Assembly (NCBI GenBank): GCA_028829895.1 | Contig: CM054183.1 | Span: 69,873,071 to 69,937,070, forward strand | Source of the DNA: Sinotaia quadrata | Lineage: Eukaryota; Mollusca; Gastropoda; Architaenioglossa; Viviparidae | Length of the DNA stretch: 64,000 bases | Direction: 5' to 3' | Shown here: piece by piece, positions 6,843 through 24,595 of the stretch | Position numbering within the stretch: position 1 is the first letter of the stretch | How the letters are laid out: every line of letters begins with the position of its first letter | Position numbers and translations under genes: made by a program | Notes under the pieces: model-generated | Told to the model about the DNA's origin: nothing | Database searches by the model: none | Seen by the model: the letters and a program-made list of their open reading frames with translations, nothing else

Positions 6843-7382
6843 ATTAGCTTATGGCTTTTTGATTGACAGCTTGCAAACACATTTACAAAATGCATGCAAG
6901 TTGACAACTGACAAGATCATTTTTGACAAGTGGCAGAATATGCTGTTACAAATGGCACAATACACAGATACATGTAGCAAACAAAGACTGACTAATGGCA
7001 TAAATCATCCAGAATGTATAGTTCCCACTTGTACTGCTGGTCATCTGTCCACTGTTGTTTATGATTCTTTGACACAGGTTTTGCCCTCTTTGGCAAAGGT
7101 GAGTGTATTGGTAGTTGTTCATGTTGCTGGCAATGGTGAGTGTATTGGTAGTTGTTCATGTTGCTGGCAATGGTGAGTGTACATAAGGTCAGCATCCAAA
7201 TCTATTTTATGGGCTACATAATGGTTTTCATCGGGTCTCGTGGTTGCTGCTAAATATTGTAACAAATATAACTGAGATCTGAGTCTTCACTGTTTTATGT
7301 TATTAAATAGTTTCGAAAAGAAAAGAAACTTGCATATCTGCCGCCTAAACTACACCATGGACCTACAACGGTATCGTTCTAG
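6843..7382 (+). CDS. 3' end of a protein-coding gene, last two coding exons
   Basis: Exon 6843-7098 is open in a protein-like frame (LAYGFLIDSLQTHLQNACKL, then FDKWQNMLLQMAQ and VYDSLTQVLPSLAK) and ends exactly at a codon before a perfect donor, AAG|gtgagt. The final exon starts at 7311 after tattaaatag and continues in phase 0 as FRKEKKLAYLPPKL, then HHGPTTVSF and TAG at 7380-7382. About 108 residues are visible. The acceptor ending at 6842 (catacag) is my choice because an acceptor at 6791, which has the better pyrimidine tract, would bring an in-frame TGA at 6823. That stop could instead be 5'UTR, with Met at 6832 as start, or an assembly error. The visible part looks like amphipathic helices. 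I do not recognise the family and give no function. The upstream exons are partly or wholly outside the window. Confidence 0.7.
7099..7180 (+). repeat. Tandem triplication of the splice donor
   Basis: The intron begins with a 37-bp unit (gtgagtgtattggtagttgt, then tcatgttgctggcaatg) present twice in full, followed by the start of a third. This places gtgagtgt at 7099, 7136 and 7173. Use of the second or third donor would add 37 or 74 nt and shift the frame into the last exon. Confidence 0.9.
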
Positions 7383-7586
7383 GCGAGCCATTGATTGTGA
7401 CAACCACGATCTTGGTCTTGGCGAACCATTGATTATGTTCCCGTTGTGTTGCCATCGATCTCTAGCAGACGACAAAGACCTCTTGCGGCCGAAATTAATT
7501 AGCGAGAAGCCAATTTTCTCAATGTGGCAGTTACGGTACCGTATTGCTTCTTGTCAGCCAAAGAATATATAAATTCATTATTTTCA

Positions 7587-7592
7587 AATAAA
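7587..7592 (+). terminator. Polyadenylation signal AATAAA
   Basis: A canonical AATAAA lies about 205 bases after the stop codon at 7380-7382. The sequence between is GC-richer than its surroundings and holds a short internal echo (ggcgaRccattgatt twice). It is best read as the 3'UTR of the gene ending at 7382. Confidence 0.6.
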
Positions 7593-7599
7593 ATTACAA

Positions 7600-7985
7600 T
7601 TGATTTAGATACAGTAAAACTTCTTTAAATATTAATAAAGAAATAAAACAAGAACCACTAATCAATTTGCCAATAGCTGTCAAGAAAGAGAGAGTGAGCA
7701 AGTCTTTTTCTTAAGAAGCGCGCACACTTTGGGTTAAATGCGGTTTGAATAACTCCAATCATTATAGCCAAGGTTGTAACTAATAAATGTGCTATAAGAT
7801 ACTGCTATTCCAGGAGTATTGCATATTCATACACAGACTGCAATTGTAGCCGTGTTGGAAAACCCTGGACACATTATAAACAGCAGCAAACTTTATATAA
7901 ATCTACAAAGCATGGTGAGAGAAATGTTATTTGGTCATTCTTTTTCCTTGCAAATCTTAAACACATCGCTTACATAGGCACACTT
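7600..7985. other. Intergenic AT-rich sequence
   Basis: Nothing recognisable lies between the polyadenylation signal of the first gene and the 24-bp array at 7989. Weak tandem character only. Confidence 0.5.
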
Positions 7986-7988
7986 GTC

Positions 7989-23732: not shown

Positions 23733-23765
<33 letters not shown>

Positions 23766-23776
23766 GTATCTGTTTG

Positions 23777-23807
<31 letters not shown>

Positions 23808-23808
23808 G

Positions 23809-23874
<66 letters not shown>

Positions 23875-24595
23875 CACCCACCTGTCCATCCATCCATCCA
23901 TCTATCTATCTATGTTTGCAAGTTTCCATTGTAGAACATTCCAGAGGCAGATCTGAATGGAGGACTTGTTTGAACTCACCTGGAAGAGAAAGGAAAGTTT
24001 TTTTTTGTTATATTAATTACAGCTCTACCAAACTTCAAAGATTCCACCTGCACACCCTTTGACAGTCTAGATCAACATCACAGAGGGGAAGGAAAATGGG
24101 CAGATGGATGGCACTCTGACTATAGAAAAATTGTTCTCAAGCAGCATTCCTTTATTCCACTTTGCATTTGACATTTTCTTCCTTTTTTCTTGGTCTCTTA
24201 TTTATTTTTTATAATTTGCATAATTTACAGCATTTGCTAATTGCAGACTTTAAAACCATTTTTTAATAATTATTTTACACTATCATTATCTTACACATTT
24301 ATTAAATGCAGACTTTAAACTTTTTATTAATAATTATTTTGTATTGTCAATCTTAACAGCAGCAGAGGCAGCTACACCATTTCAGGAGACGTTTGAAAGG
24401 GAGTTGTCTCCCTGTCCAGCTTCTTCTCCATCTTCCCATTCAAGGCCTTCCATGCCTACCCCAACACGTGCTCGTCCAGTGGTGCCAGCTGCAACACATA
24501 TCTCCAGATTTTGTTTCACAAACCAGGCACACCAACCATCTCCACCTTCTACCCCCTTTTCTGTTCCGTATTCACCACCTGCATTTTTGTCATAG
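10182..24595 (+). CDS. Eight-exon gene, ciliary microtubule-binding-like protein (447 aa)
   Basis: Coding exons: 10182-10361, 10455-10632, 13749-13842, 15588-15750, 17376-17526, 20584-20763, 22565-22726 and 24360-24595 (TAG). Every border is AG/GT, phases agree throughout, and the exons sum to 1344 nt. Residues 1-60 come from the first exon, which is less typical of the rest. Residues 70-100 are acidic-basic and helical (DFSRELEKYYDKAD). Five spaced motifs follow: TTYKREY (133-139), TTYDEEF (171-177), STYQRDY (244-250), SSFQRAIY (278-285) and TTYDRHF (330-336), with proline-rich links (GIPQ, YKPPG). The last exon is Pro/Ser-rich. Short S/T-T-Y-x-x-x-aromatic units spaced by tens of residues are typical of proteins that line or coat axonemal microtubules (SAXO- or TEX26-like groups). 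Placement here rests on that style alone; I cannot name the orthologue. The start ATG is the first after an in-frame stop at 10134. The 24892 AATAAA may end this isoform. Confidence 0.85.
10633..11414. repeat. Intron 2: worn tandem repeats
   Basis: The first part of intron 2 is filled with diverged units around ctataCaaatctctcaccat and acactatac, about 40-50 bp apart. Towards 11330-11414 they become regular (tatacaaatctctcacatag, then tatccactaat). No exon is seen. Confidence 0.8.
11415..11768. repeat. Intron 2: minisatellite, 23-bp unit
   Basis: About 15 copies of actcaaatcactaggtatat followed by cat, with an A/G alternation at one site (gatata or ggtata) and Y at another. One copy has an inserted atatgatat. 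Confidence 0.95.
12385..12545. repeat. Intron 2: 30-bp repeat, about 5 copies
   Basis: The unit is cccagtgctgacagtttggg followed by tgtcctgttt. As 30 is a multiple of 3, two frames stay open (SADSLGVLFP), but there are no splice sites around it. Confidence 0.85.
12745..13075. repeat. Intron 2: repeat of about 50-60 bp
   Basis: About six diverged copies contain attgtagtcagtatgtctgc, tttcactggcactccagaca and tatcgat. Spacing is irregular because of small deletions. Confidence 0.8.
13354..13545. repeat. Intron 2: 64-bp repeat, 3 copies
   Basis: Three nearly identical copies contain tttgtattaggggttctttg, agaccatggctcttgttttg and tgtatagttcttcatcctgt. The array lies 200 bp upstream of the exon 3 acceptor and does not include it. 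Confidence 0.95.
13843..15296. other. Intron 3, mostly unique AT-rich sequence
   Basis: I see no array and no additional exon here. An open frame near 14424-14624 lacks splice signals and protein-like composition. T-rich and C-rich pyrimidine runs occur at 14990-15100. Confidence 0.5.
15297..15587 (+). repeat. Intron 3: reiterated acceptor region of exon 4
   Basis: About four copies of a 64-70-bp unit run up to the true acceptor. Each contains catttatcttattttcag followed by acatatcagtaa, so each ends in a pyrimidine-rich tract plus CAG, like the real site ttttcag|ACC at 15587. The last, worn unit (ttattttcagactcacccat) lies directly before the working acceptor. Confidence 0.9.
15741..16110 (+). 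repeat. Intron 4: array seeded by the exon 4 donor
   Basis: The exon ends ...ccccactaag|gtcagcacc. The 67-bp units that follow carry taccccactaaagtcagcag, a copy of the last exon bases joined to the first intron bases, then taatgaccaagatatatcct and actaatccagcagtaatagc. About four copies are present. In the copies the donor reads aagtca in place of ggtcag, so the GT dinucleotide is shifted or weakened. Confidence 0.9.
16190..16525. repeat. Intron 4: 41-bp repeat, 8 copies
   Basis: The unit is ctatgatcagtgacagtagg then caaagcaaaactatttctag g. Copies are nearly identical, so the expansion is recent. Confidence 0.95.
16830..17375. repeat. Intron 4: worn repeats reaching the exon 5 acceptor
   Basis: Diverged units contain taattattatcatggt, gtatgacaatattaatt and tcatggcatttca. 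The last of them overlaps the acceptor tract of exon 5 (catcatggcatttcat, then ttgcttttacttcag). Confidence 0.65.
17488..18040 (+). repeat. Intron 5: array seeded by the exon 5 end and donor
   Basis: Exon 5 ends CTTACCAGCGTGACTACC, then TAGGCATACCACAGG|gtaatacacc. In the intron the same order recurs at least five times in worn form, for example cttaccagtgttactacctg ... ccataaggtaatacatc near 17601-17650, then cttaccagcatcaatatc ... ccataaggtaagacat near 17661-17701. Each early copy carries an AG|GTAAK-like donor. Copies further in are more diverged. Confidence 0.9.
18300..18675. repeat. Intron 5: 61-bp repeat, 6 copies
   Basis: Near-identical units contain ttgtatgctgttggccttgg, agtaactcttgacttgatgg and ccattacttatagaacaac. 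A/C variants (ccattactt or ccacttctt) mark individual copies. Confidence 0.95.
19330..20290 (-). pseudogene. piggyBac-like transposase remnant, internally deleted
   Basis: Reading the minus strand from right to left, fragments in several frames match the piggyBac plan. Near 20255-20100 there is an acidic Ser-rich N-terminal piece (SSSESSDVYC, EIQADRDLNADDSE). At 20040-20000 the landmark LLKKRLYACGTIR appears. At 19790-19760 MNGVDIHD corresponds to the MGGVDxxD landmark, followed by a KR...GNTFLGF echo. At 19480-19370 a Cys-rich C-terminal domain reads RCYNLKQQVRKDTIFGCTQC, then CQECHAPC. These are interrupted by stops and frameshifts, and the central DDE catalytic core is missing because the acidic part lies almost beside the YACGT block. 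The copy cannot make an active transposase. I could not fix TTAA ends or terminal inverted repeats. It sits antisense in intron 5. Confidence 0.85.
20800..21600. repeat. Intron 6: worn repeats with (C)n(TA)n tract
   Basis: The stretch from 20800 to 21130 consists of units around gtatgtctctctatgaatgt. A run of C followed by about 14 TA dinucleotides lies at 21197-21232. From 21240 to 21560 the units are of about 42 bp (gtatatcactctgtgaatgt, ttctgtgtatatgtctctgt). The rest of intron 6 to 22466 is AT-rich without an exon. Confidence 0.85.
22464..22580 (+). repeat. Duplicated exon 7 acceptor (77 bp apart)
   Basis: The working acceptor region (caattattctttgtttcacag|TACCT at 22564) has a close copy 77 bp upstream (ataattactctgtttcacag|tacctg, ending at 22487). 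The copy includes the first five exon bases. Use of the upstream copy would read I-P-A-C and then stop. Confidence 0.9.
22850..23095. repeat. 56-bp repeat in intron 7
   Basis: Three to four copies contain acaagttttaagtgcaagca, cactaaactgaaccaactaa and tgacttaatactattt. Confidence 0.85.
23704..23915. repeat. (TCTA)n/(TCTG)n tetranucleotide tract
   Basis: About 50 tetranucleotides of TATC/TGTC type end in ccatccatccat. Both open frames across it (YLSIYLSI) are repeat artefacts. A shorter TCCA/TCTA tract lies at 26341-26392. Confidence 0.95.
24232..24366 (+). repeat. Duplicated exon 8 acceptor region with NAGNAG
   Basis: Two copies of about 62 bp (ctaattgcagactttaaaac ... tcattatcttacac and ttaaatgcagactttaaact ... 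tcaatcttaacag) lead up to exon 8. The working site reads aacagcagcag, so three AGs 3 bp apart could serve, changing the protein by one or two residues (A-A-E, A-E or E) without a frameshift. Confidence 0.75.

What the first reader, a model, noticed from the sequence alone, without database searches (positions are those of the whole stretch)
7099..24366. Intronic tandem repeats grow out of the genes' own splice junctions
At six proven exon borders the adjacent tandem repeat or duplication contains the splice site itself: donor at 7099 (37-bp unit), acceptor at 15587 (64-bp unit), donor at 15751 (67-bp unit including exon bases), donor at 17527 (unit including about 33 exon bases), acceptor at 22564 (77-bp duplication including five exon bases) and acceptor at 24359 (62-bp duplication). 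A seventh case adjoins a candidate exon (45198). Copies next to the exon often resemble it most. This suggests a process in which short duplications start at exon-intron borders and then expand, lengthening introns and supplying decoy splice sites. I know of no named system of this kind, though splice-site duplication as such is known from intron-gain studies.
Basis: partly seen in the sequence, partly recalled or inferred. Interest (0 to 1): 0.9.

Follow-up and report, generated by a model that had tools for sequence, protein, structure and literature searches.

The report
Snail splice sites copied into minisatellites
In this genome, most likely a snail's, short tandem repeats fill many introns, and some 3 to 5% of the splice sites sampled have been copied, often with a few exon bases, into the intron beside them; this matches the 'mirages' described in lancelets, and the repeats take in exon borders about as often as random placement predicts, so they probably do not grow out of splice sites.

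Summary
The copies are real; the proposed rule is not supported. Of six claimed borders, three (15751, 17527, 22565) are junction duplications that beat every one of 214-217 swapped junctions. Two are weak: 24360 (copy one base short of the border, p=0.014) and 15588 (12-bp match, p=0.037). At 7099, as at the seventh case 45198, the repeat is real but the exon unproven. The gene at 10182-24595 is TEX26-like, in a probable caenogastropod. Over 204 exons (myosin, dynein, TEX26-like), junction 30-mers have a near copy in the adjacent 400 bp at 12 of 193 donors and 8 of 195 acceptors, against 0.1% for swapped pairs but 13% for arbitrary intron 30-mers: duplicated, but less often than intron interior. 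In 178 complete introns, placement with up to 30 exon bases allowed predicts 9.7 arrays taking in exon bases; 10 are seen. Outer edges within 30 bp of a border are 26 against 18-20 (P 0.04-0.09): at most a mild pile-up. Decoy GT/AG bases decay no faster than others. The phenomenon is known in lancelets as 'mirages'; here it appears in a mollusc, with a frequency and a null test.

The parts
10182..24595 (+). TEX26-like gene, eight exons (10182-10361, 10455-10632, 13749-13842, 15588-15750, 17376-17526, 20584-20763, 22565-22726, 24360-24595)
   Evidence: phases and GT-AG borders consistent; 46 homologues at E 0.001 or better, the best ones in caenogastropods
15737..16110 (+). donor 15751 with 14 exon bases and the adjacent 67-bp-unit array (15811-16110) whose copies hold CCCCACTAAAGTCAGC
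   Evidence: score 41, 0 of 214 swapped junctions as good
17488..17954 (+). donor 17527 with 39 exon bases and degenerate downstream copies (best one 17839-17907)
   Evidence: score 44, 0 of 214; further copies seen by eye in the sequence
22466..22577 (+). acceptor 22565 with 13 exon bases and its upstream copy 22466-22501
   Evidence: score 38, 0 of 217
24242..24358 (+). tandem duplication 24242-24297 / 24307-24358 ending one base short of the border of acceptor 24360; no exon base copied
   Evidence: p=0.014 for the junction part
15294..15587 (+). 64-bp-unit array upstream of acceptor 15588; only a 12-bp acceptor-like match to the junction
   Evidence: p=0.037
7091..7181 (+). 37-bp repeat holding GTGAGT donor-like sites; exon before it unproven
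   Evidence: no Pfam or PDB match
45190..45387 (+). 22-26-bp-unit array holding GTAAGT sites after a candidate exon that is unproven

Best explanation
Locally born tandem duplications (median unit 41 bp), likely made by replication slippage or repair errors, lie throughout the sampled introns, and some take in an exon-intron junction, leaving copies of the splice site and 2-47 exon bases in the adjacent intron. Shown: the copies, their frequency in the sample, that no array lies wholly inside a sampled exon, that arrays taking in exon bases number what unbiased placement predicts if up to about 30 exon bases are tolerated, and that few units recur at another sampled locus. Inferred: because the original junction stays intact, such duplications are nearly neutral; the exon-flanking site is the one used (the homologous reading frame fits it); the intronic copies then expand, homogenise and decay like any other minisatellite. 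Exons look like barriers because duplications inside coding sequence would be lost. In kind these are the 'mirages' of lancelets.
For: 204 exons: junction copies at 6 edits or fewer in 12 of 193 donors and 8 of 195 acceptors; swapped pairs 0.1%; intron-interior 30-mers 12.9% and 13.0%. Outside the window, exons that overlap a family match give 8 of 142 junctions, the others 10 of 232. Fresh set of 20 dynein stretches: 1 of 22 and 1 of 21. Thirteen TRF arrays run over a junction by 2-45 exon bases, none of them in the window gene, and one in the fresh set by 47 (L042); none of 260 arrays lies wholly inside an exon. Placement null, 178 introns and 150 arrays: 10 seen, 9.7-9.8 expected with 30 exon bases allowed. 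Decoy signals kept 75 of 88 (GT) and 34 of 36 (AG) bases, other aligned bases 1135 of 1291 and 478 of 533. 12 of 229 arrays (period 20 or more) have a unit that matches another sampled locus; three of the four unit pairs shared between loci are between the close paralogues L008 and L009. L008 and L009 (exon identity 91-97%) share an acceptor-spanning array with 30 exon bases (4.1 and 6.1 copies), absent beside the same acceptor in L007 (72-83%), so that intron does not depend on the array.
Against: Outer array edges within 30 bp of borders are 26 against 18-20 expected, P 0.04-0.09 with 30-60 exon bases allowed, so a weak pull to borders may exist. The null depends on how much exon is allowed: with 15 bases the spans exceed it (10 against 5.1, P=0.025), with 0 they cannot occur, with 60 there are fewer than expected (10 against 17.2). 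Three of the 13 spanning arrays (L008 2168, L021 9268, L028 9303) lie at ends of loci, outside the 178 complete introns, so the null does not see them. The sample is 17 groups of myosin stretches, dynein genes and one other gene, not the whole genome. 120 of the 196 exons outside the window were accepted by eye, not by a family match. Junction-spanning arrays have longer units (median 55 against 40, P=0.019), which random placement predicts but which could mean something else. L007 could have lost the array. No RNA evidence on which site is used.
Confidence: 0.8

Rival explanations
1. Border-seeded growth: duplications preferentially start at exon-intron borders (for example through transcription-linked breaks or splice-motif microhomology) and expand into the intron.
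For: Outer edges within 30 bp of borders 26 against 18-20 expected (P 0.04-0.09); left edges 1.5-2.0 per kb from 10 bases inside the exon to 30 bases into the intron at donors, against about 0.8 in the interior; the fresh set shows three more arrays starting 0-14 bases past a donor and one ending 4 bases before an acceptor.
Against: A matching deficit at 30-60 bp, so -30 to +60 is 32 against 29.6; arrays with exon bases 10 against 9.7; junction 30-mers are copied less often than interior ones.
Confidence: 0.12
2. Selected decoys: splice-site copies are kept because they regulate splicing or buffer against loss of the true site.
For: Some arrays keep many intact copies, for example donor copies in muscle myosin (L006) and acceptor copies in L015.
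Against: Decoy GT/AG bases are kept about as well as other bases of the same copies (0.85 against 0.88; 0.94 against 0.90); frequency fits unselected placement.
Confidence: 0.04
3. Intron birth by tandem duplication: the repeats are scars of the events that created these introns.
For: Duplicated junctions are the substrate of that model (PMC4974935 abstract; PMC3087553 passages).
Against: Paralogue L007 has the same intron position without the array; most array edges lie far from borders.
Confidence: 0.03

Closest known systems
'Mirages' of lancelets (Adh3, troponin C, globins BflGb6 and BflGb9; [quoted passage not shown] PMC3902484, one passage read; the naming paper, Canestro 2002, is cited there and not held)
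   Same: Tandem units run across 5' or 3' exon borders, many carry AG/GT signals, copy number varies; units 10-72 bp in Adh3, 150-160 bp in globins.
   Different: A mollusc rather than a cephalochordate; here measured over 204 exons and set against a null, whereas those passages describe single genes. RT-PCR in lancelet suggests normal splicing; here there is no RNA.
[quoted passage not shown] Rogers 1989 and Gao and Lynch 2009 seen only in the reference list of PMC3087553)
   Same: Duplication crossing an intron-exon border copies the splicing signals.
   Different: No new intron shown here; the copies sit inside an existing intron.
Ordinary intronic minisatellites (for example a 27-bp unit in intron 3 of abalone TSSK1-like, PMC6905558, passages read)
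   Same: Similar unit size, intronic, in a gastropod.
   Different: No border copies are described in the passages read.

Membership tests
[quoted passage not shown]
   13 TRF arrays with 2-45 exon bases; window donors 15751 and 17527 and acceptor 22565 by alignment
[quoted passage not shown]
   75 of 88 GT bases and 34 of 36 AG bases kept in copies of 16 cases
[quoted passage not shown]
   8 donor and 5 acceptor arrays
[quoted passage not shown]
   no RNA data; reading frames fit the exon-flanking site
[quoted passage not shown]
   4.1 against 6.1 copies in paralogues L008 and L009; no population data
intron gain by tandem duplication | a new intron created from the duplicated segment | tested here: not met
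   same intron position in L007 without the array; only one gene family was testable

The most novel reading that the evidence does not exclude
Mirages are a genome-wide trait of a mollusc: roughly one splice junction in twenty lies in or beside a junction-copying minisatellite with near-identical decoy sites, unselected, which means that splicing there must tell identical sites apart by position alone; a weak extra pull of array edges to exon borders may act on top.
Probability: 0.35. Interest if true: 0.6.

Novelty: new member of a known kind. Interest (0 to 1): 0.45.

Why it matters
It takes an oddity described in a handful of lancelet genes to a second phylum, gives it a frequency (about 3-5% of sampled junctions) and a null model, and finds that unbiased placement accounts for most or all of it. 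Such junctions are natural tests of how the spliceosome picks one of several near-identical sites, and a standing supply of raw material for intron gain or sliding.

Tried and rejected
Enrichment at borders by coverage, by copy frequency and by edge placement: only a mild edge excess found. 'Nearest copy most alike' rejected (4 of 13). Selection against decoys not seen. Dispersed-element origin of units not supported in the sample (12 of 229 match another locus; window:7050-7250 matches only itself in the genome search, which skips simple repeats); the same genome search for 15751-16110 did not complete.

Curation of the exon set: the exon model predicted 241 exons, 76 of them overlapping a family match. 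I left out 46 by eye, corrected five by eye, marked a border of nine as uncertain, and added one exon with its acceptor only (from a family match), giving 196 plus the 8 of the window gene; the 120 kept without a family match rest on phase chaining and my recognition of myosin- or dynein-like sequence. In the fresh set five predicted exons were dropped and three borders marked uncertain; its own control had only 28 positions (14.3% and 10.7%). In the window itself 26% of non-exon positions have a near copy, against 1 of 7 donors and 1 of 7 acceptors. Of the 20 counted junction copies, L017+L018 acceptor 5927 and L021 donor 4210 show no support with a 40-mer probe, and L022 donor 1862 and L024+L027 donor 24131 look like intron-only repeats; the firm figure is nearer 4%, and TRF alone gives 13 of 396. 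Splice-site starting weights were recalled, then retrained on the predictions.

Literature: searches. Their listings and the passages I opened showed no mollusc report of border-spanning repeats; that covers open-licence PMC text only, and most listed papers were not opened (among them a cone-snail gene-structure paper).

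Full report
What is there. The window is part of a 984-Mb assembly of 26 contigs. The gene at 10182-24595 has eight exons with consistent phases and its protein matches TEX26-like proteins, best in caenogastropods, so the organism is most likely a caenogastropod; no record names it. Tandem arrays of period 10 or more cover 34% of the window and 29% of this gene's introns, so near-border arrays are expected by chance: 41% of positions in these introns have an array within 50 bp.

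The six claimed borders. I aligned each junction with its own adjacent 400 bp and compared the score with 214 donors or 217 acceptors from other genes aligned to the same stretch. Donors 15751 and 17527 and acceptor 22565 beat all of them and include 13-39 exon bases. Acceptor 24360 has a real tandem duplication, but the match ends one base short of the border (p=0.014). Acceptor 15588 shares only a 12-mer that looks like an acceptor (p=0.037). At 7099 and at the seventh case 45198 the repeats are real, but nothing supports the exons (7099 also 67). The nine other junctions of the gene show nothing (lowest p 0.051).

Wider sample. Family searches located 80 myosin-head matches and 107 and 70 dynein matches. 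I fetched 20 x 10 kb of the myosin loci and 50 kb of two dynein genes, decoded exons with a home-made exon model anchored on the matches, and curated 204 exons with 196 donors and 200 acceptors, the window gene included. A junction 30-mer (9 exon and 21 intron bases) has a copy at 6 edits or fewer in the adjacent 400 bp in 12 of 193 donors and 8 of 195 acceptors (those with 400 bp held); swapped junction-intron pairs give 0.1%; intron-interior 30-mers give 12.9% and 13.0%. The 76 exons outside the window that overlap a family match give 8 of 142 junctions, the 120 accepted by eye 10 of 232. A fresh set of 20 dynein stretches gave 1 of 22 and 1 of 21. So junctions are truly copied, but less often than intron interior.

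The clearest cases are outside the window. In the muscle myosin gene (L006) a donor with 13 exon bases sits in an array of about 27-bp units, ten of eleven copies keeping GT; in L021 and L028 donors sit in 37- and 35-bp arrays; in L015 an acceptor sits in a 35-bp array with AG kept in all five copies found.

Edges. Array coverage is about 0.20 at 400-1400 bp from the border, 0.05 (donor) and 0.04 (acceptor) in the first ten intron bases, and 0.003 or less 30-60 bases into the exon. Random placement of 150 arrays in 178 complete introns, with up to 30 exon bases allowed, gives 9.7 arrays with exon bases (10 seen), 20.1 outer edges within 30 bp (26 seen, P=0.07) and 29.6 within -30 to +60 (32 seen). 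In a second run the edge excess has P=0.093 at 30, 0.043 at 45 and 0.036 at 60 exon bases allowed; at 15 it is P=0.007 and the spans are 10 against 5.1 (P=0.025); at 0 the observed numbers exceed the null clearly. Six introns with an uncertain border were left out, and three of the 13 spanning arrays lie at ends of loci, outside these introns. My reading: placement is close to unbiased if about 30 exon bases are tolerated, with at most a weak pull to borders.

What happens to the copies. Few units recur elsewhere in the sample (12 of 229). No array of 260 lies inside an exon. Decoy GT/AG bases are kept like other bases. The nearest copy is the closest or joint closest in only 4 of 13 cases. 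In three related myosin loci, the two close ones share an acceptor-spanning array with 30 exon bases (4.1 and 6.1 copies) that the third lacks beside the same acceptor, although only 336 bases upstream are held there. That intron therefore does not owe its existence to the array, unless the third locus lost the array.

Known kind. Two open papers describe the same thing in lancelets as 'mirages' (PMC3087553, passages; PMC3902484, one passage); RT-PCR there suggests undisturbed splicing, and copy number varies. Intron gain from a border-crossing duplication is reported in potato (PMC4974935, abstract). I found no mollusc report in the listings and passages seen.

Verdict. Real and recurrent, a new member of a known kind in a new phylum, explained mainly by a high density of local tandem duplication and by the tolerance of introns; the idea of growth out of splice junctions is not established.

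Noticed in passing
L004-L005 (C6:65635096, 65636278, 65637932): Three successive copies of one myosin-head exon (model positions 120-152), as expected for mutually exclusive exons of a muscle myosin heavy chain.
   Followed up: no
window 63007-63999: A 331-codon open frame with the highest codon score among the window's frames (45.8 bits), running off the window end: likely an exon of another gene.
   Followed up: no
window 2500-2720 and 57180-57370: Two stretches on the same strand that look alike by eye (both hold ATATCTGCAACTGTTACGC), perhaps copies of a dispersed element; not aligned.
   Followed up: no
L010 8772-9649: Predicted exons that read like reverse-transcriptase pieces, perhaps a LINE fragment in a myosin intron; not searched.
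   Followed up: no
L008 6341 and L009 7362: A second acceptor-side repeat, clear in L009 (4 edits), degenerate by eye in L008 (10 edits), not seen beside the same acceptor in L007 (11 edits).
   Followed up: partly
G000 contigs C1-C7: Seven contigs of 98-156 Mb make up about 923 of 984 Mb, so the animal may have few large chromosomes.
   Followed up: no
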